Positions 43,649-53,379 of a stretch of DNA of 64,000 nucleotides are shown here, piece after piece. Each line of letters opens with the position of its first letter. Position 1 is the stretch's first letter. Source of the stretch: Peristeroidobacter soli (GTDB lineage: Bacteria; Pseudomonadota; Gammaproteobacteria; Steroidobacterales; Steroidobacteraceae); contig NZ_ML142848.1 of assembly GCF_004138485.1 (NCBI RefSeq), positions 1,834,640 through 1,898,639 of the forward strand, written 5' to 3'. The translations under genes were made by a program, and so were the position numbers. The notes below the pieces were generated by a model. The model was not told where the DNA came from. It made no database searches and worked only from the letters and a program-made list of their open reading frames with translations.

Positions 43649-44719
43649 ATGCGACGTCTGATTCCTTGCCTGCTCTCGTTGGCCATTCTCAGCGGCTGCG
43701 GCCTCACCCGAGGCGGTGAGTTGCCGTCGAAGTCGGCAAAGCCGGTGTTCGCTTCGGTCGAAACCGAGCCTGTGGCCAGCGCTAACGACGCCGCGGACGA
43801 CCCGGCGATCTGGATCCACCCGACCGATCCGTCGCGCAGCCTGATCATCGGCACCGACAAGAAGAACGGCCTCGATGTCTACGACCTCGCCGGCAAGCGC
43901 GTGCAGACGCTGTCCGATGGCCGCTTGAACAACGTCGATCTTCGCTATGGATTTGCGCTGGGCGGCCAGGAAATCGCCATCGTCGCGGCGACCAATCGCA
44001 CCGATCAAACATTGGCGCTGTATGCCGTCGATGCCAACGGCCGGCTGAGCAATGTCGCCGACGGCAAGGTCGCCACTGGCATGGCGGATCCTTATGGCCT
44101 GTGTATGTATCGCAGCGCCGCCGGTGAGTACTTCGTGTTCGCCAACGACGGCGACACCGGCCACTTCAAACAATGGCAACTCGAGGCACGCGGCGCGCGC
44201 GTTGGCGCTCGGCTGGTTCGTGAGTTCGCCGTTGGCTCGCAGGCGGAAGGTTGCGCGGCGGATGATGGGACGGCGGCGCTGTATGTTGCCGAAGAGGATG
44301 TGGGGCTCTGGCGCTATTCCGCCGCGCCCAATGGCGGCGATGCCCGTACGTCGGTCGACACTGTCGCCAAGGGCAACCTGACCGATGATGCCGAGGGTGT
44401 GACGATCTATTACGGCCCCGGGTCCACGGGTTACTTGATCGTGTCCAGCCAGGGTTCCAACGACTACAACGTTTATCGGCGTGATGGCGATAACGAGTTC
44501 ATCGGGAAGTTCGCCATCGTTCCGCGCCCGGCCGGCATCGACGGCACCAGCGACACCGATGGCATCGATGTCACGAGCACTTCGCTCGGCTCCGCGTTCC
44601 CGCACGGCGTGTTTGTCGCGCAGGATGGGAAGAATACGAATCCCTCCGCGCCGCAGAATTTCAAGCTGGTGCCGTGGGAGCGGATTGCGGAGGCGCTGAA
44701 GCTGCCTCGCGCGAACTAA
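43649..44719 (+). CDS. Beta-propeller phytase lipoprotein
   Basis: The 356-residue protein has a lipoprotein signal (LIPCLLSLAILSGC, lipid Cys at 17). The mature part has the beta-propeller phytase pattern: ANDAADDPAIWIHPTDPSRS, IIGTDKKNGLDVYDLAGKRV, DLRYGFALG, MADPYGLCMYR, DDAEGVTIYYG, YLIVSSQGSNDYNVY and NTDGIDVT-like GTSDTDGIDVT. Such enzymes release phosphate from phytate using Ca. It would sit in the periplasm or outer membrane. A TonB-dependent receptor gene follows after 171 bases, but that gene has its own putative operators. GGAG lies about 8 bases before the ATG. Confidence 0.9.
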   Translation: MRRLIPCLLSLAILSGCGLTRGGELPSKSAKPVFASVETEPVASANDAADDPAIWIHPTDPSRSLIIGTDKKNGLDVYDLAGKRVQTLSDGRLNNVDLRYGFALGGQEIAIVAATNRTDQTLALYAVDANGRLSNVADGKVATGMADPYGLCMYRSAAGEYFVFANDGDTGHFKQWQLEARGARVGARLVREFAVGSQAEGCAADDGTAALYVAEEDVGLWRYSAAPNGGDARTSVDTVAKGNLTDDAEGVTIYYGPGSTGYLIVSSQGSNDYNVYRRDGDNEFIGKFAIVPRPAGIDGTSDTDGIDVTSTSLGSAFPHGVFVAQDGKNTNPSAPQNFKLVPWERIAEALKLPRAN

Positions 44720-44782
44720 AAGCACTTGCGAAAGGCCGGGTTCTGGACGTTGCCGCAGCGACGTCTGGGACAATTTGCCCAC

Positions 44783-44843
44783 CGATATGCAGGATCGGAC
44801 ATAGCGCTGGTCCGCCCCTCGTTATATCCTCACGGATATCGCG
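44783..44843 (+). promoter_or_regulatory. Two tandem ModE-like operators upstream of the TonB-dependent receptor
   Basis: Box 1 has CGATATGC (44783-44790), an 8-base spacer, and ACATAGCG (44799-44806). Box 2 has CGTTATAT (44820-44827), an 8-base spacer, and ATATCGCG (44836-44843). The E. coli modA operator, as I recall it, is CGTTATAT, 8 bases, ACATAACG. Box 1 matches in 5 and 7 of 8 positions of its halves, box 2 in 8 and 5. The boxes are centred 37 bases apart and end 47 bases before the TTG start. With modE nearby, molybdate control is likely. Confidence 0.65.
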
Positions 44844-44890
44844 CACCCGCTTGCCGGCGGTCGGCGCACCGAAAATAAGGGAGCACCGGC

Positions 44891-46936
44891 TTGGCCAAGA
44901 ACACTTTCAGCACACTGACACTCGCGATCGGCGCAATCTGTGTGACCAGCGCGGCCCGCGCTGACGACAGCAACGTCTTCACGCTCGGTCAGATCACCGT
45001 CACCGCGCCTCGCATCGACACCGTCCTGGGTGACGCCACCGTCAGCCAGGAAGAAGTGTGGAACTTCAACCTGAACACGCTGGACGAGGCCGTGAAACTC
45101 GTGCCAGGCGTCACCAGCAACTTCGACTCCAACGGTCGCCGCAACGAGCACGACATCTTCGTGCGCGGCTACGGCCGCTGGCAGGTGCCGCTGTCGATCG
45201 ATGGCATTCGGGTCTATCTGCCCGCCGACAATCGTCTCGACTACAATCGTTTCCTCACGCAGGACCTCGCCGAGATTCAGATCCGCAAAGGTTACGCGTC
45301 CGTGCTCGACGGCCCCGGCGGGCTCGGCGGCGCGATCAACCTGGTGACTCGCAAGCCCACCAGGGCGTTCGAGTCGTCGTTCCAGAGCGAAGCCATGTTC
45401 GGCAATGAGGGTTACGAAGGCTGGAGCAGCACGCTCAGCCTCGGCACACGGCAAGACAACTACTACGCACAGGCCAGCGGCAGCTATCTCGATCGGGATC
45501 ATTGGTCGCTGTCCAATGATTTTCGGCCGACCGCGATGGAAAACGGCGGCGAGCGCGACGGCTCCGCGACCAAGGATTGGCGCGTCAACGTCAAGGTCGG
45601 GTTCACACCGAACGAGACCGATGAATACAGCCTCAGCTACACCAGGCAGGAAGGCGAGAAAGGCGCGCCGCTGCAGGTGTTCAACAACCCGCCGAATCCG
45701 CCCAACAGCTATTGGACCTGGCCGTGGTGGGACACCGACAGCATTTATTTCCTGTCGCACACCCAACTCAGCGACAGCAGCTATCTGAAGACGCGCCTGT
45801 TCTACAACACGTTCGACAACGCGCTCTGGGCCTATGACGACGCGACTTACACGACGCAATCGTTGAATGGCCGCTTCCGCAGCAGCTACGACGACAACGG
45901 TTACGGTGGCAGTGTCGAAGCAGGCATGTCGCTCAGCGAGAGCAACATCCTCAAGGGCTCGATCCACTATCGCGTCGACGAGCACCGCGAGCGGGACCTC
46001 AACCGCCCGACGAGCCCGGCGTTCGCCGCCATGGAGCCGTGGACCGGCAGGAAGGAGCACACCTGGTCCGTTGCGCTGGAAGACACGATGCAGTTCACGT
46101 CACAACTCAGCGCCGTGTTCGGCGTGAGCTATGACAAGAACGAGTTGAAAGAAGCCACCGACTACACGGTCGCGCGCGGCGTCTTCAGCTACTCGACCGG
46201 CGACAGCGACGCCGTCAACGGCCAGGCCGCCGTGTACTGGCGTTACAACGATGCCGCTCAGCTGCACGCGTCGATCTCGTCACGCTCTCGTTTCCCCACC
46301 AACTTCGAGCGCTTCAGCACCCGCTTCGGCAACGCCGTGCCCAATCCGGATCTGGAGTCGGAACGCGGCGTGAATTACGAGATCGGTTGGGAAAGCGGCA
46401 CGCAGTGGCAGACCACGACGCTGGCCGCGACCGTGTTTTACAACGACATCAGCGACATGATCCAGACGGTGATCGTGCAAGTCTCGCCACAGCTGACCCA
46501 GACTCAAAACGTCGGCGACGGCGAAGCGTACGGCGTCGAACTGAGCGCCGACACGCAACTCACCGATCAGCTGCGCATCGGCGCGAACTACACCTACCTG
46601 CATCGCGAGGTCACCGACGCCTTGCAGCCAGGTCTGCGCCCGGCCGGCACACCGACGCATCAGGGCCTGGTGTTCGTGAGCTATCAGCCCATTCCGCAGC
46701 TGACGATCATGCCGAACCTGGAACTGGCGGACGATCGCTGGAGCGACAACGGCACCGGCCGCTTCGTCGAGGTCGGCCAGTACAAGCTCGCGAATCTACA
46801 GGTTCAGTATCGCGCCAACGAGGCGTGGGAACTGGCTGTCGGTGCCCGCAACCTGCTGGATGAGAACTATCAGCTCGCGTTCGGCTATCCCGAACAGGGC
46901 CGCACCTACTACGCGAAGTTCAAACTGGACTTTTGA
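44891..46936 (+). CDS. TonB-dependent receptor, predicted molybdate-regulated
   Basis: The 681-residue protein has a signal peptide (TFSTLTLAIGAICVTSAARA), a plug (TLGQITVTAPRIDTVLGDAT, LDEAVKLVPGVTSNFDSNGR, HDIFVRGYGRWQVPLSIDG) and a barrel ending TYYAKFKLDF with terminal Phe. ITVTAPR is a TonB-box-like start. I chose the TTG at 44891 because AAGGGAG lies 6 bases upstream and the signal peptide begins there. Two ModE-like boxes lie just upstream, and modE and the mod transporter genes follow. Its substrate is inferred to be molybdate or a molybdenum complex. The preceding phytase offers an alternative, phytate or phosphate uptake. Confidence 0.9.
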   Translation: MAKNTFSTLTLAIGAICVTSAARADDSNVFTLGQITVTAPRIDTVLGDATVSQEEVWNFNLNTLDEAVKLVPGVTSNFDSNGRRNEHDIFVRGYGRWQVPLSIDGIRVYLPADNRLDYNRFLTQDLAEIQIRKGYASVLDGPGGLGGAINLVTRKPTRAFESSFQSEAMFGNEGYEGWSSTLSLGTRQDNYYAQASGSYLDRDHWSLSNDFRPTAMENGGERDGSATKDWRVNVKVGFTPNETDEYSLSYTRQEGEKGAPLQVFNNPPNPPNSYWTWPWWDTDSIYFLSHTQLSDSSYLKTRLFYNTFDNALWAYDDATYTTQSLNGRFRSSYDDNGYGGSVEAGMSLSESNILKGSIHYRVDEHRERDLNRPTSPAFAAMEPWTGRKEHTWSVALEDTMQFTSQLSAVFGVSYDKNELKEATDYTVARGVFSYSTGDSDAVNGQAAVYWRYNDAAQLHASISSRSRFPTNFERFSTRFGNAVPNPDLESERGVNYEIGWESGTQWQTTTLAATVFYNDISDMIQTVIVQVSPQLTQTQNVGDGEAYGVELSADTQLTDQLRIGANYTYLHREVTDALQPGLRPAGTPTHQGLVFVSYQPIPQLTIMPNLELADDRWSDNGTGRFVEVGQYKLANLQVQYRANEAWELAVGARNLLDENYQLAFGYPEQGRTYYAKFKLDF

Positions 46937-46954: not shown

Positions 46955-47380
46955 TCACCGGGACGTTGCTCGCCTGGCCGCCGCGGTGGCCGGCGAGCGC
47001 TGCGTGCGGGTGATGGAGCGACGCGTCCCCTCGCGCTGGGTGCTCACGGTCTTGAGCATGGGCCCGAAGTATTTCTCGGCGCGGGAGTTGGTTTCTTTTT
47101 CGAACTGGCGATACGCGGTCACGATGGCTTCACCGAACTCGGTGAGCGTCGTACCGCCGCCGCCACTGCCGCCGGTCGCAGTCAGCACCAGCGGCTCACG
47201 AAAGGTCTGATTGAGGCTGGCCAGCAACTGCCAGGCGCGGCGATAGCTCATATCCAGGTCGCGAGCCGCCTGCGACAGCGAGCCGGAGTCGCGCATCTTT
47301 TCGAGCAATGCCACCTTGCCCGGCCCGATGGCATGGTCGGAATCGAAGTCCACACGCAACGTAATCTTGAGCCTGCTCAT
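46955..47380 (-). CDS. modE: ModE-type molybdate-responsive regulator, HTH domain only
   Basis: The 141-residue protein has the ModE N-terminal HTH: GKVALLEKMRDSGSLSQAAR, DLDMSYRRAWQLLASLN and the glycine-rich GGSGGGGTTLTEFGEAIV. It lacks the two C-terminal TOBE/Mop domains of E. coli ModE (262 residues), so molybdate sensing would need another protein or an unfamiliar mode. The tail is rich in Arg and Ala (RRSITRTQRSPATAAARRAT). GGAGAG lies about 5 bases before the ATG at 47380. It is divergent from modA and convergent with the TonB receptor gene, 18 bases apart. Confidence 0.9.
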   Translation of the reverse strand: MSRLKITLRVDFDSDHAIGPGKVALLEKMRDSGSLSQAARDLDMSYRRAWQLLASLNQTFREPLVLTATGGSGGGGTTLTEFGEAIVTAYRQFEKETNSRAEKYFGPMLKTVSTQREGTRRSITRTQRSPATAAARRATSR

Positions 47381-47460: not shown

Positions 47461-48717
47461 ATGATCCTGTCCCTGGCGCGCAGCTTTGCGCATCTTCTCA
47501 TCGCAGCCCTGCTGCTGACCCGAACCGCCGCGGCGGCCGAGGCGCAGCGCGAGCCCTTGCTCGTATTCGCGGCGGCGTCGCTGACCGACGTGTTGCAGCA
47601 GGCCGGGCCGCTGTACACCAGGCAGTCCAACGTCGAGGTGAAGTTCTCGTTCGCCGCGAGCTCCGCGCTGGCCAAGCAGATCGAGTCCGGCGCCAGGGCC
47701 GACGCGTTCCTGTCCGCCGACCAGGACTGGATGAACTACCTGCAGGAACGCAAGCTGATCAAGACCGACACGCGCAGCGACCTGCTCGGCAATCGGCTGG
47801 TGCTGATCGCGCCGAAGGACAGCAAGGTCACGCTGAAGATCCAGAAAGGCGCGCCGTTGCTGGAGGCGCTCGGCCCGAACGGCCGGCTCTCGACCGGCGA
47901 TCCGGACTCGGTGCCGGTCGGCAAGTACGCCAGGACCGCGCTCGGCAATCTCGATTTGTGGGCCGCGATCGAACCCCGCCTGGTGCGAGCGGACAACGTT
48001 CGCGTCGCGTTGATGTATGTGGCTCGTGGCGAAGCGCCGCTCGGCATCGTGTACGCGACCGACGCCGCAGCCGAGCCGCAAGTTCGCGTTGTGGATCTGT
48101 TCCCCGAATCCGCACACGCCCCGATCACTTATCCTATGGCGGCAACCACCAGCGCCTCGCCTGAGACTGCGTCATTCCTGAAGTTCCTGCGCAGCGACGC
48201 GGCTCGCGCCATCTTCACCAAGGCCGGCTTTACCATCCTGAGTGGCGGCGCCAAGACCGCTGACGGCGCTGCAGCTTGCAGCGGCTTCCAGTTCGACGTG
48301 AGCAAGGAACTGAAGGTGTTCGAGAGCAAGCCGCGCGAAGTAGCCGCCACGACCGCCGCGAATTCGGCTGCTGCGATCGATGTGAATCAGCTGTACTCCG
48401 TGAAGCTGACGGATCAAAGCAAGGTGTCGTTCGCCACGACGCCCGGCAAGTCGACAGTCGCCGATGGCTCGTACGCCGGCCTGCTCAAGATCACCTCGCC
48501 TCGCTCACAAACCATTCGTGTCACGGCGACGGAACATGCGTGGCTGGACGTCGTCAGCGGCGGCAAACTGGTCGAGTCGGCCCGTCACACCGGCAGCGCC
48601 AACTGCAAAGTGTTACGCAAGGTCGTGGAGTTCAAGATCGCGCCGGATCAGCCGGTGATGATTCAGGTGAGCGGCAGCACCGAGCAGCAGATCAAGCTCG
48701 CGGTCACGACGACTTGA
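47461..48717 (+). CDS. modA: Periplasmic molybdate-binding protein ModA with C-terminal extra domain
   Basis: The 418-residue protein has a signal peptide (residues 1-26) and a complete ModA domain to about residue 262 (LLVFAAASLTDVLQQAGPLY, FSFAASSALAKQIESGARAD, FLSADQDWMNYL, VALMYVARGEAPLGIVYATD, YPMAATTSA). Usual ModA is about 255 residues. Residues 270-418 form a second domain with two cysteines (273 and 382), GLLKITSPRSQTIRVTATEH and AWLDVVSG. It resembles stand-alone secreted proteins of unknown function. GAGG lies 8 bases before the ATG. The 3' end overlaps modC tail to tail by 14 bases. Confidence 0.9.
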   Translation: MILSLARSFAHLLIAALLLTRTAAAAEAQREPLLVFAAASLTDVLQQAGPLYTRQSNVEVKFSFAASSALAKQIESGARADAFLSADQDWMNYLQERKLIKTDTRSDLLGNRLVLIAPKDSKVTLKIQKGAPLLEALGPNGRLSTGDPDSVPVGKYARTALGNLDLWAAIEPRLVRADNVRVALMYVARGEAPLGIVYATDAAAEPQVRVVDLFPESAHAPITYPMAATTSASPETASFLKFLRSDAARAIFTKAGFTILSGGAKTADGAAACSGFQFDVSKELKVFESKPREVAATTAANSAAAIDVNQLYSVKLTDQSKVSFATTPGKSTVADGSYAGLLKITSPRSQTIRVTATEHAWLDVVSGGKLVESARHTGSANCKVLRKVVEFKIAPDQPVMIQVSGSTEQQIKLAVTTT

Positions 48718-49849
48718 CCGGCGGCCCTTCGACAAACGCGTGACCGCGGATCGAGACTGACTTCACCAGCGCCCACACCTGCAGACCGGGGCGCAGACTC
48801 AGCGCATCCGACGCGGCGCGCGTGACGCGCGAGAGAATCGACGCGCCACCGATGTCGACATAGACCAGCTCGGTATCCTCAACATCCGGAACGATCCGCG
48901 CGATCGTTCCGGTCATGATGTTTCGAACACTGAGGTTCTCGGGCCGGCTGGTTGCGAGAATGATGTCTCGCGCCAGCAATTGGGTGCGGACGTGAGCGCC
49001 GGCTTTCGCCTCCCGCAAGCCAATCCGCAGTACGTTCGTGCCGACCCGGATGTTTGCCAGGCCGGTGCCACCATCCACCGACTCCACGACGCCATGGATG
49101 ACGGCGCCCACCGCATCCGGCCCGACGATGGCGCGCAACTCCGGATGCAGGCTCAGCTCATCCAGCGGCCCCTGCGACAGCACTCTGCCTTGATCCATCA
49201 GCACGACGTGGGTTGCGAGCCGCAGCACTTCCTCGAACTGATGGCTCACATAAATCATGGGAATCGCCAGCTCATCGCGCAGCTTCTCCAGATACGGCAG
49301 CACTTCTTCGCGACGCGCGGCATCGAGCGACGCCAACGGCTCATCCAGAACCAACACGCGCGGACCCGACAGCAACGCGCGCCCCAACGCGACGCGCTGA
49401 CGTTCGCCACCCGACAGTTGATGAACCCGCCGTGACAACAACGGCTCGAGCCCAAGCAACGGCGCGACCACGTCGAGCGTGATGCGCGGCAGATCCCGGC
49501 GCGGATTCACCCGCAGGCCCTGCAAATCCGGAACGAATCGATTGGCGCGCTGCTCGCCGTAGCGCAGATTCCCCATCACATCGAGGTGAGGAAACAATCG
49601 CGCATCCTGGAACACGTAACCGATGCGTCGATGCTCGGCCCGCAACGATTTGCCGCTCTGTTCGAGCGCAACGCCGTCGATCACGATGCGCGCTTCGTCG
49701 GCCGGCAGCAGTCCCGCGACGATGTTTGCCAGCGTCGTCTTGCCGCAGCCGGAGCGGCCGAACAGCGCGATCACGCCGGGAGAGGAGACCTCGATCTCCA
49801 CATCGAGCACAAAGCTCTCGCGGCGCTTCTTGGCGCGGATGCTGAACAT
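48704..49849 (-). CDS. modC: Molybdate ABC transporter ATP-binding protein
   Basis: The 381-residue protein has Walker A FGRSGCGKTTL (about 30-40), the signature LSGGERQRVALGRALLSGPR, Walker B VLVLDEPLASLD and switch His in YVSHQFEEV. The C-terminal third is a TOBE/Mop-type domain (LRIGLREAKAGAHVRTQLLA, DIILATSRPENLSVRNIMTG), as in ModC, which binds molybdate and regulates uptake. It powers ModB import of molybdate bound to ModA. It follows modB by 8 bases on the same strand. modA lies on the opposite strand, an unusual split. Confidence 0.94.
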   Translation of the reverse strand: MFSIRAKKRRESFVLDVEIEVSSPGVIALFGRSGCGKTTLANIVAGLLPADEARIVIDGVALEQSGKSLRAEHRRIGYVFQDARLFPHLDVMGNLRYGEQRANRFVPDLQGLRVNPRRDLPRITLDVVAPLLGLEPLLSRRVHQLSGGERQRVALGRALLSGPRVLVLDEPLASLDAARREEVLPYLEKLRDELAIPMIYVSHQFEEVLRLATHVVLMDQGRVLSQGPLDELSLHPELRAIVGPDAVGAVIHGVVESVDGGTGLANIRVGTNVLRIGLREAKAGAHVRTQLLARDIILATSRPENLSVRNIMTGTIARIVPDVEDTELVYVDIGGASILSRVTRAASDALSLRPGLQVWALVKSVSIRGHAFVEGPPVKSS

Positions 49850-51674: not shown

Positions 51675-52167
51675 GCTAACGGCCAGGCACATCTGGGCAG
51701 GACGCCCGCAACGATTTCGACGACGCCTTAGGCGCCTGTGGCGCCGCTGGATTGATGTGCCATCGGCGAGGCAGGCCAAAGGCCAGGGAATGGAGCGAAT
51801 CAGCCGCTCCATGGGGAGGCTACGGATCAGTTTCCCTGCTTACGCGCGGATGTGGATCCAAGGACCGGATGCCGCTTCGCGTGTCTTTATGAACCAGCTT
51901 GGTCATCTCAAGCAGCCGTCCCTGGAGCCTCGACCAGCCGGTACTTCCATGTACCGTCGTTCGCTCGGTTCGAGGCGACGTTAAGTCGCCTCGAAGAGGC
52001 ATCCTCGCTCACCCCTGCTTACGCGCGGATGTGGATCCAGGGAGTCAGGCCGCCCATCCCGCGTCTTTCGGTCAGTTCCAGGTTCGGGACTGGCCAGAAT
52101 TTGCCCATTCCTGCGCTCTTTCTGCTCCGATATAGCGCCCTCCCGTGGCTCGTGACACACTTTCGCG
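51675..52167. repeat. Repeat-rich spacer upstream of moeA
   Basis: This is most of the only gene-free stretch longer than 300 bases (51634-52167). A perfect 27-base direct repeat, containing GCTTACGCGCGGATGTGGAT, occurs at 51834-51860 and 52013-52039. Between them lie GGTACTTCCATGTACC (51940-51955), one base off the core of the dispersed element, and a perfect palindrome TTCGAGGCGAC/GTCGCCTCGAA (51969-51979, 51985-51995). I see no protein with family likeness; apparent short frames here are Arg-rich and track the repeats. The last 60 bases must hold the moeA promoter. Confidence 0.65.
52114..52137 (+). promoter_or_regulatory. Weak ModE-like box upstream of moeA
   Basis: The right half ATATAGCG (52130-52137) fits the AyATArCG half-site exactly. 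Eight bases before it lies CGCTCTTT (52114-52121), a weaker left half (CG-T-T-T fit). The centre lies about 42 bases before the moeA GTG. It is a candidate only; E. coli ModE does act on moa, which is why I looked. Confidence 0.3.
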
Positions 52168-53379
52168 GTGTCCAGCCGACTCCTGTCACCCACTGAAGCC
52201 GAAGCCGCGATTCGCCAGCATGCGACGCCGCTGCCGGCCGTCGCTTTGCCCCTGATTGAGCTGTCGGGCGCGGTGCTGCGCGAATCCATCACCTCGACGC
52301 GCGATCAGCCGCCGTTCGACCGGGTCACGATGGACGGCATCGCCTTCTCGTTCGCGGCCTGGCAAGGCGGCCGGAACAGCTTCCGGATCAACGGCACCCA
52401 AGCGGCCGGCGCCGCGCCGCTGACCTTGCGCGAGCCCACCGACTGCATCGAAGTGATGACCGGCGCGATGCTGCCCATCGGCTGCGATTGCGTGGTGCCG
52501 GTCGAGAACATCGAAACCGGCGATGGCATCGCTCAACTGCGCGACGACGCCCCCGCGCCGGTGCGCAATCTCAACATCCACAACCGCGGGATCGATTCGC
52601 GTCGTGGCGATCTGTTGTTACCGTCGGGCGCCCGGCTCGGCCCCGCCGAAGTGGCGGTGATCGCCTCGAACGGGCAAACGCACGCGCTGGTCTCGAGGCC
52701 GCCGCGCATCGTCGTGATTTCCACGGGCGACGAACTGGTCGAGCCCGGCCAGCCACTCCAGGATTGGCAGATCTCGCGCTCCAACGTTTACGCCGTGCTC
52801 GCCTCGCTACGACAGCATGGCTATGCCGCGCTCTCGCACGATCACGTGCCCGACGACCTGCCGAAACTGCGCGAGCGCCTGAGCGCTCACCTCGCCGCCA
52901 ACGACGTGATGATCCTCAGTGGCGGCGTGTCGATGGGCCGGTTCGATTACGTGCCGCAGGTCCTGCAGGAACTGGGCGTGCGCAGGATCTTCCACAAAGT
53001 CGCGCAGCGTCCGGGCAAACCGCTGTGGTTCGGCGTAGGCAGCGGCGGACAGACGGTGTACGCGTTGCCCGGCAATCCGGTATCGACGCTGGTTTGCCTG
53101 ACGCGCTATGTGCTCCCTGGACTGCAGGCATCGCAAGGCGCCTCGCCCGCGCCCGTTGAAACCGTCTCACTTGCCCAAAGCTACGACGTGAAGCCACCGC
53201 TCGCGGTGTTCCTGCCCGTGGCGATCATTCAGGATGTCGCGGGACCATGCGCCTTGCCGCAGCCGACACGGGGTTCCGGCGATTTCACCTCGCTGGTCGG
53301 CACCGTAGGCTTCGTGGAACTGCCGCCGGGCCCGCGAGTCGTTATGGAAGACGCGACGTTGCCTCTTTATCGTTGGTAG
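52168..53379 (+). CDS. moeA: Molybdopterin molybdenumtransferase
   Basis: The 403-residue enzyme inserts molybdate into adenylated molybdopterin in the last step of cofactor synthesis. MoeA blocks are present: STRDQPPFDRVTMDGIAFSF (the MDG(Y)A motif), EVMTGAMLPIGCDCVVPVEN, VVISTGDELVEPGQPL, LSGGVSMGRFDYV, KPLWFG and YALPGNPVSTLVC. It starts with GTG at 52168 and begins a plus-strand unit with moaA (4 bases), moaC (4 bases), mobA::moaD and moaE, all closely spaced or overlapping. A weak ModE-like site lies upstream. Confidence 0.95.
   Translation: MSSRLLSPTEAEAAIRQHATPLPAVALPLIELSGAVLRESITSTRDQPPFDRVTMDGIAFSFAAWQGGRNSFRINGTQAAGAAPLTLREPTDCIEVMTGAMLPIGCDCVVPVENIETGDGIAQLRDDAPAPVRNLNIHNRGIDSRRGDLLLPSGARLGPAEVAVIASNGQTHALVSRPPRIVVISTGDELVEPGQPLQDWQISRSNVYAVLASLRQHGYAALSHDHVPDDLPKLRERLSAHLAANDVMILSGGVSMGRFDYVPQVLQELGVRRIFHKVAQRPGKPLWFGVGSGGQTVYALPGNPVSTLVCLTRYVLPGLQASQGASPAPVETVSLAQSYDVKPPLAVFLPVAIIQDVAGPCALPQPTRGSGDFTSLVGTVGFVELPPGPRVVMEDATLPLYRW

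What the first reader, a model, noticed from the sequence alone, without database searches (positions are those of the whole stretch)
44783..46936. TonB-dependent receptor with two ModE-like operators: predicted outer-membrane molybdate uptake
Two inverted half-site pairs, each with an 8-base spacer (CGATATGC/ACATAGCG and CGTTATAT/ATATCGCG), lie 47-108 bases before a TonB-dependent receptor. They match the E. coli ModE operator style closely. modE is the next gene, then modA, modC and modB. Small oxyanions usually cross the outer membrane by porins, so an energised, molybdate-controlled receptor would be a new layer of molybdenum uptake. Box similarity is seen in the sequence; molybdate as ligand is inference.
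Basis: partly seen in the sequence, partly recalled or inferred. Interest (0 to 1): 0.78.

Follow-up and report, generated by a model that had tools for sequence, protein, structure and literature searches.

The report
ModE-controlled outer-membrane molybdenum receptor family
This bacterium, and many others including a good share of E. coli strains, seems to use an energised outer-membrane receptor under the cell's molybdenum switch to collect molybdenum, a job usually left to passive pores.

Summary
Two ModE-type operators (44783-44806, 44820-44843) precede a TonB-dependent receptor (44891-46936) beside modE, modA, modC and modB. Against the published E. coli ModE consensus they are the two best sites of the window, and they are conserved in the nearest relative (43/48 bases against 61/121 around them). 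The operator recurs across the receptor family: 43 of 87 upstream regions by fixed pattern (0.9 in shuffles), 74 of 87 by weight matrix, but 0 of 18 control receptors of this genome. Neighbours recur: ModE 34/88, ModA 11/88, MolA-like 10/88. A distant relative lies in an operon with modD whose DNA is in 2102 of 5426 complete E. coli genomes; a strong ModE site was read in the three strains examined. ModE control and a role in molybdenum acquisition are well supported. The ligand (molybdate, a molybdenum chelate, tungstate) is untested. Corrections: this ModE lacks the molybdate-sensing domain, and no box precedes modA or modB here. [quoted passage not shown]

The parts
44783..44806 (.). ModE-type operator, box 1 (CGATATGCAGGATCGGACATAGCG)
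   Evidence: 0 mismatches to CGNTAT-N12-ATANCG; 24/24 identical in G129; second best E. coli consensus match of the window, 15/22; weak by the family matrix, 9.1
44820..44843 (.). ModE-type operator, box 2 (CGTTATATCCTCACGGATATCGCG)
   Evidence: 1 mismatch to the pattern; best E. coli consensus match of the window, 16/22; 21.4 by the family matrix
44891..46936 (+). TonB-dependent receptor, 681 aa, TTG start behind an AAGGGAG motif
   Evidence: Pfam Plug and TonB_dep_Rec_b-barrel; no NCBIfam subfamily cut-off reached among the 24 models hit; family alignments
46955..47380 (-). short ModE-type regulator, DNA-binding domain only (141 aa from the nearest ATG; the ORF runs to 47434)
   Evidence: TIGR00637 85.2 bits, cut-off 98.5, no Mop domain
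47461..48717 (+). modA fused to a C-terminal domain here called MAC (aa 263-418)
   Evidence: TIGR01256 189.8 bits, over its cut-off; MAC homologues stand alone beside the receptor in relatives
48247..48714 (+). MAC domain: beta-sandwich like pre-peptidase C-terminal domains; no Pfam or NCBIfam hit
   Evidence: AlphaFold2 pLDDT 92.3; Foldseek 1nqd E 3.9e-4, TM 0.49
48704..49849 (-). modC
   Evidence: TIGR02142 388.7 bits
49858..50547 (-). modB
   Evidence: NF006939 317.3 bits
52114..52137 (.). weak ModE-type box before moeA
   Evidence: 1 mismatch; 9.3 by the family matrix
52168..53379 (+). moeA, followed by moaA
   Evidence: ORF table; named by reading the translation, not by a family search

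Best explanation
The receptor belongs to a wide subfamily of TonB-dependent receptors that bring molybdenum (molybdate, a molybdenum complex, or both; tungsten possible) across the outer membrane and are held under ModE. When the cell has enough molybdenum, ModE bound at the boxes (median 74 bases before the start codon in the family) shuts the gene; when it is short, the receptor is made. The cargo is passed in the periplasm to a binding protein (ModA fused to MAC here; a MolA-like protein, a stand-alone MAC protein or another solute-binding protein elsewhere) and on to an inner-membrane ABC importer. Shown: the operators, their conservation, the gene linkage and the ModA-MAC fusion. Inferred: ligand, direction of regulation, hand-over.
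For: Operator in 43/87 family upstreams by fixed pattern (shuffle mean 0.89, max 3), 74/87 by leave-self-out matrix, 40 of 51 genus or title labels. 0/18 control receptors of the genome. Footprint p = 1.2e-6. Linkage in 88 loci: ModE 34, ModA 11, MolA-like 10, at least one of ModE/ModA/ModB/MolA 41, box or such a gene 80; by parsimony the linkages change state many times on the receptor tree (ModE 22, MolA 10). MolA-like proteins hit HI_1472 (MolA) at E 1.8e-25 and 5e-19. E. coli: operon with ModD (504 bits), ModE site 18-19/22 in three strains, operon DNA in 2102/5426 genomes. P. aeruginosa plasmid: box before the receptor beside moaA and nar genes. MAC is fused to ModA here and in 4 other loci, and stands alone next to the receptor in other lineages.
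Against: No box before modA or modB in the window. The ModE here has no sensor domain; 28 of 34 linked ModE proteins are short. 13 of 87 upstreams lack a box, though 3 of these (L055, L068, L117) have a strong one further upstream; 4 of 88 loci have none of box, ModE, ModA, ModB, MolA, MAC; only 2 of 7 independently drawn gammaproteobacterial loci have a strong box. The MolA-like proteins match 4pag, named only 'Periplasmic binding protein', better than HI_1472, and several are annotated as iron transporters. No transport, binding or expression data. The receptor fold job had not finished, so nothing is known of the pocket.
Confidence: 0.78

Rival explanations
1. The receptor takes up another metal complex (an iron siderophore or copper carrier) and ModE merely co-ordinates that supply with molybdoenzyme demand.
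For: Nearest NCBIfam models are siderophore and haem receptors, all below cut-off; FecBCD-type importers beside relatives are annotated as iron importers; an MbnH-like di-haem enzyme, of a family tied to copper in methanotrophs, lies near 31 of 88 loci (PMC3621798 passages).
Against: ModE, ModA, ModB, MolA-like and ModD linkage; ModA fusion; three MAC proteins hit no NCBIfam or Pfam model, MbnP included.
Confidence: 0.1
2. The receptor carries tungstate (or mainly tungstate); MolA does not discriminate between Mo and W.
For: MolA binds tungstate too (PMC4031551 passages).
Against: No tup or tungstate gene is named in the six annotated plasmid stretches read, whereas modD, moaA and nar genes are; tup genes were not searched for by themselves.
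Confidence: 0.07
3. The receptor serves phytate or phosphate together with the phytase gene upstream (43649-44719).
For: Phytase lies 171 bases upstream on the same strand; phytase also beside the receptor in G129, L064 and L069.
Against: Phytase in 2 of 80 genome-contig loci against ModE in 28 of 80; in L064 and L069 it is on the other strand.
Confidence: 0.02
4. The boxes are chance AT-rich palindromes.
For: In the window alone 5 of 100 shuffles give as many matches, no excess at 2 mismatches; exact pattern not in excess genome-wide.
Against: Footprint, family-wide recurrence, control receptors.
Confidence: 0.02

Closest known systems
TonB-dependent siderophore receptors (TIGR01783), CirA, FepA/PfeA, BtuB
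   Same: Plug and barrel domains; best PDB profile matches are the colicin I receptor and ferric enterobactin receptors; TonB box-like ITVTA near the N-terminus (by eye)
   Different: The subfamily cut-offs are missed; promoter carries a ModE operator; neighbours are molybdenum genes
Azotobacter chroococcum Achr_39320-39290, 'TonB receptor potentially for molybdate' (PMC4465626)
   Same: TonB receptor in a molybdenum gene cluster with an ABC transporter, modE/G and modABC (passages)
   Different: No operator, family or function was examined in the passages seen; homology to this receptor was not tested here
E. coli ModE regulon
   Same: Operator sequence and 24-base core
   Different: Target is an outer-membrane receptor; window ModE lacks the Mop domains
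Haemophilus influenzae MolABC (MolA taken as HI_1472, recalled)
   Same: Type II ABC importer (PMC4031551 passages) whose binding protein resembles those beside receptors in relatives
   Different: Not at the window locus; PMC4031551 does not hold the word TonB
P. aeruginosa T6SS-secreted ModA with outer-membrane IcmP (PMC8602904)
   Same: A dedicated route for molybdate at the outer membrane (passages)
   Different: Uses a secreted ModA and IcmP, not a TonB-dependent receptor
MbnP/MbnH pairs with TonB-dependent MbnT (PMC3621798)
   Same: TonB receptor beside a small secreted protein and a di-haem MauG-like enzyme
   Different: MAC is not matched by an MbnP model; many of these loci have a ModE box; methanobactin genes were not searched for

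Membership tests
TonB-dependent receptor | Plug domain and TonB_dep_Rec beta-barrel | tested here: met
   PF07715 56 bits, PF00593 143 bits, both over cut-off
TonB-dependent siderophore receptor TIGR01783 | score over the curated cut-off 223.5 | tested here: not met
   168.2 bits
TonB-dependent B12, copper, haem receptors (TIGR01779, TIGR01778, TIGR01785) | score over curated cut-offs | tested here: not met
   93.3, 52.0, 139.4 bits, all below
ModE (full-length molybdate-sensing regulator) | N-terminal ModE DNA-binding domain | tested here: inconclusive
   TIGR00637 85.2 bits, E 2.5e-24, cut-off 98.5; 7 of the 8 ModE proteins scanned are below it, 64-91 bits
ModE (full-length molybdate-sensing regulator) | C-terminal Mop/TOBE molybdate-binding domains | tested here: not met
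   absent; one TOBE found in the genome, in ModC
ModE operator | match to ATCGCTATATA-N6-TATATAACGAT | tested here: met
   16/22 and 15/22, the best two in the window
ModE operator | binding by ModE | not testable with these tools
   needs gel shift or footprint
Molybdate receptor | binds and transports molybdate | not testable with these tools
   no ligand data; fold job unfinished
MolABC-type importer (relatives only) | binding protein similar to MolA HI_1472 | tested here: inconclusive
   second-best PDB hit, E 1.8e-25 (L067), third-best 5e-19 (L083), second-best 1.2e-7 (E. coli); best in each is 4pag
MbnP for MAC | hit to an MbnP model | tested here: not met
   no NCBIfam hit for three MAC proteins at E 0.1
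A. chroococcum molybdate-receptor candidate | homology to Achr_39300 | not tested
   sequence not fetched

The most novel reading that the evidence does not exclude
This is the outer-membrane part of a dedicated, ModE-controlled metallophore pathway for molybdenum, present even in E. coli: the cell makes a small molybdenum carrier (ModD and a SAM methyltransferase are candidates in the E. coli operon), the receptor takes the loaded carrier back, and a MAC protein, in many lineages matured by an MbnH-like di-haem enzyme on its invariant tryptophan, strips or stores the metal for ModA or a MolABC-type importer.
Probability: 0.2. Interest if true: 0.92.

Novelty: new variant of a known kind. Interest (0 to 1): 0.78.

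Why it matters
Molybdate is usually taken to cross the outer membrane through porins (recalled). A conserved receptor family under ModE would add an energised first step to molybdenum uptake and give a cargo to many, perhaps several hundred, receptors that records call only 'TonB-dependent receptor' with a siderophore term. The E. coli operon, annotated as iron transport, makes the idea testable where ModE is best understood, and bears on competition for molybdenum in soil and in hosts, on nitrate respiration and on nitrogen fixation.

Tried and rejected
Phytate reading: rejected because phytase is beside few relatives. Chance reading: rejected after footprint, family and control tests. Exact short pattern genome-wide: no excess, so not used as evidence. 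Di-haem cluster: the single-linkage cluster of 34 loci held antisense ORFs; replaced by tblastn counts (31 of 88). Sequence search of MAC against the PDB: one hit at E 0.53. Promoter scan of 44700-44960: no sigma-70-like site. Paper searches for a known ModE-controlled TonB receptor (listings only, open-access library; the term ModE also matches the word mode, which weakens them) showed none by title or abstract; the A. chroococcum remark came from passages of PMC4465626. One search returned no paper. A review of TonB substrates (PMC11658791) and a paper on a copper receptor family (PMC12914433) hold no word starting with molybd. PMC10723695 and PMC10781756 (passages) gave nothing to the point.

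Two of 20 control regions had no receptor ORF by my script; one search also scored a 19th receptor, L042, chosen because of its box, which is not a control. L183 and L184 lack the 5' end and were left out of the second-receptor count; three relatives of 44% were not fetched for it (one of them, in this genome, is control L163). 6 of 23 plasmid records were read. The 87 upstreams are not independent (L062/L107 and L102/L105 are near copies), and the matrix was trained on the same loci with only the tested locus left out. The tree is a FastTree with long branches flagged.

Full report
What is there. The window lies in a 9.37 Mb genome; the nearest named relatives are Steroidobacter and Povalibacter. 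Upstream of a 681-aa TonB-dependent receptor (44891-46936, Plug and barrel domains) are two 24-base palindromes of the ModE type. Downstream lie modE(-), modA(+), modC(-), modB(-), then moeA and moaA. Two features were not in the finding. ModE is short: it has the DNA-binding domain but no molybdate-sensing Mop domain, and the only TOBE domain found in the genome is in ModC. ModA carries a 156-aa C-terminal domain, here called MAC, with no Pfam or NCBIfam match.

Are the boxes real? In the window alone the evidence is fair: 3 pattern matches against 0.79 expected. Three tests make it strong. Against the E. coli consensus printed in PMC2700814 (passage), the two boxes are the two best 28-mers on both strands of 64 kb, 16/22 and 15/22. 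Against the relative G129, whose receptor is 79% identical, 43 of 48 box bases are conserved and 61 of 121 other intergenic bases (Fisher p = 1.2e-6). Of 18 control TonB receptors of the same genome, none has a box within -300 to +60 of the ORF start, at least 3 mismatches each.

Does the family share them? With 7 loci of the family search and the window, 87 upstream regions could be read. The fixed pattern with up to one mismatch occurs in 43 (shuffles: mean 0.89, maximum 3) and without mismatch in 14 (0.04). A leave-self-out matrix puts 74 of 87 above the 99% shuffle level and 68 above 99.9%. Of the 13 others, L055, L068 and L117 have a strong site further upstream. The set is not independent; by genus or title label 40 of 51 have a member with a box. 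Caulobacterales are the weak group, 1 of 5, though 3 of those 5 have ModE beside the receptor.

What lies beside it? In 88 loci, within about 6 kb (up to 10 kb for the seven family loci): ModE 34, MAC 49, MbnH-like di-haem enzyme 31, ModA 11, MolA-like binding protein 10, ModB 6; 41 have at least one of ModE, ModA, ModB or MolA; 80 have a box or one of these; 4 have none of these nor MAC. Eight ModE proteins, the window's among them, were scanned and match TIGR00637, one above its cut-off and seven below (64-91 bits against 98.5); the two full-length ones of these also match Mop. On a quick tree (FastTree) ModE linkage changes at least 22 times and MolA linkage 10 times, so the association is not one inherited accident. 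The MolA-like proteins of L067 and L083 hit HI_1472 (H. influenzae MolA, name recalled) in the PDB at E 1.8e-25 and 5e-19, behind 4pag, named only 'Periplasmic binding protein', and in one case also 4ovk.

Out-of-sample checks. Of 369 genomes sampled from the class, 8 (own included) hold a relative at E 1e-60. Of the 7 others, 4 have MolABC-like genes near the receptor, 2 another binding protein, 1 nothing; ModE is near in 1; a strong box is present in 2, a borderline one in 1. Of 23 plasmid records with a relative I read 6: five have a box of 16 bits or more just before the receptor or its operon (L186, L187, L188, L189, L191), one (Bartonella, L190) has not.

E. coli. In plasmid pMY504-2 a relative (28.5% identity over 687 columns, E 3e-79) ends a gene row: binding protein, iron-type permease, ATPase, SAM methyltransferase, ModD (TIGR01334, 504 bits, cut-off 179), receptor. 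A ModE site matching 18/22 of the consensus lies 24 bases before the first gene. DNA of this row matches in 2102 of 5426 complete E. coli genomes, nearly always on the chromosome, and covers 80% or more in 2094; its promoter matches in 2098. The site itself was read in three sequences: in two promoter variants of 95-96% identity (SCU-316, CFT073) it is kept at 19/22 with changed bases. RefSeq names the binding protein an iron ABC transporter protein. The E. coli receptor lacks the W-x-WP-x-W motif of the main family, so it is a distant member.

A second receptor. A different 794-aa receptor of the same genome (C10:137550-139931) has a 25.9-bit box 44 bases before its start. All 9 fetched relatives of 49% identity or more whose 5' end is held (own included) have a box close to the start, 12.8-33.6 bits; 0 of 10 fetched relatives of 42-48% do. 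ModE control of TonB receptors is thus not confined to one family. Its cargo is unknown; no molybdenum gene was recognised near it in L042 by reading the ORFs.

How it most likely works. ModE represses the receptor when molybdenum is ample; under shortage the receptor is made, TonB opens it, and the metal reaches ModA or MolA. Shown by sequence: operators, conservation, linkage, the fusion of MAC with ModA (window, L027, L044, L045, L046), and MAC genes apart from ModA beside the receptor in other lineages, a Rosetta-stone argument (inference). Repression rather than activation is inferred from box position and from R. capsulatus, where MopA and MopB repress at Mo-boxes (PMC6925177 passages). 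How a ModE without sensor domain would feel molybdenum is open. MAC folds with confidence as a beta-sandwich like pre-peptidase C-terminal and collagen-binding domains (pLDDT 92.3; Foldseek E 3.9e-4, TM 0.49), with invariant L54, W99, D101, C120 and K125. That MbnH acts on a tryptophan of its partner is recalled.

Ligand. Free molybdate is small and porins pass it (recalled), so an energised receptor makes most sense for very low supply or for a complex. Type II importers usually carry chelates (recalled), Azotobacter makes compounds that bind molybdenum and are taken up (PMC3440940 passages), and ModD with a methyltransferase could make one; ModA linkage favours molybdate. I leave this open. 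A receptor fold was queued but not finished.

Known or new. Of the 11 papers of which I saw passages or word counts, one states the idea: PMC4465626 on A. chroococcum, in one clause. P. aeruginosa uses secreted ModA and IcmP (PMC8602904 passages). The searches named under Tried and rejected showed no report of a ModE-controlled TonB receptor; they cover open-access papers only, and regulon databases and subscription papers were not searched. I therefore call it a new variant of a known kind.

Noticed in passing
G000:C10:137506-137529 (L042:7507-7530), receptor L042:7551-9935: A second, different TonB-dependent receptor (794 aa) has a near-perfect ModE-type box; 9 of 9 fetched closer relatives with their 5' end share it and 0 of 10 more distant ones do.
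   Followed up: partly
L191:1323-7797 (E. coli); DNA in 2102 of 5426 complete genomes: Gene row annotated as iron transport, with modD and a SAM methyltransferase, behind a strong ModE site; probably a molybdenum system.
   Followed up: partly
window 48247-48714; copies apart from ModA such as L103:5357-5923: MAC, an uncharacterised secreted beta-sandwich domain with invariant Trp, Asp, Cys and Lys, found in 49 of 88 loci, fused to ModA in 5, often beside an MbnH-like di-haem enzyme.
   Followed up: partly
window 46955-47380: ModE without sensor domain; 28 of 34 receptor-linked ModE proteins are of this short kind, so how they sense molybdenum is open.
   Followed up: no
window 52114-52137: Weak ModE-type box before moeA and moaA.
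   Followed up: partly
window 43649-44719: Phytase gene directly upstream of the receptor, shared with G129.
   Followed up: partly
L055, L059, L189: Receptor gene rows with a different solute-binding protein and a di-haem oxidoreductase, with a strong box before the first gene.
   Followed up: no
L186:6822-9384 (P. aeruginosa plasmid): Family receptor with a ModE-type box beside a small molybdopterin-dependent protein, moaA and nar genes.
   Followed up: no
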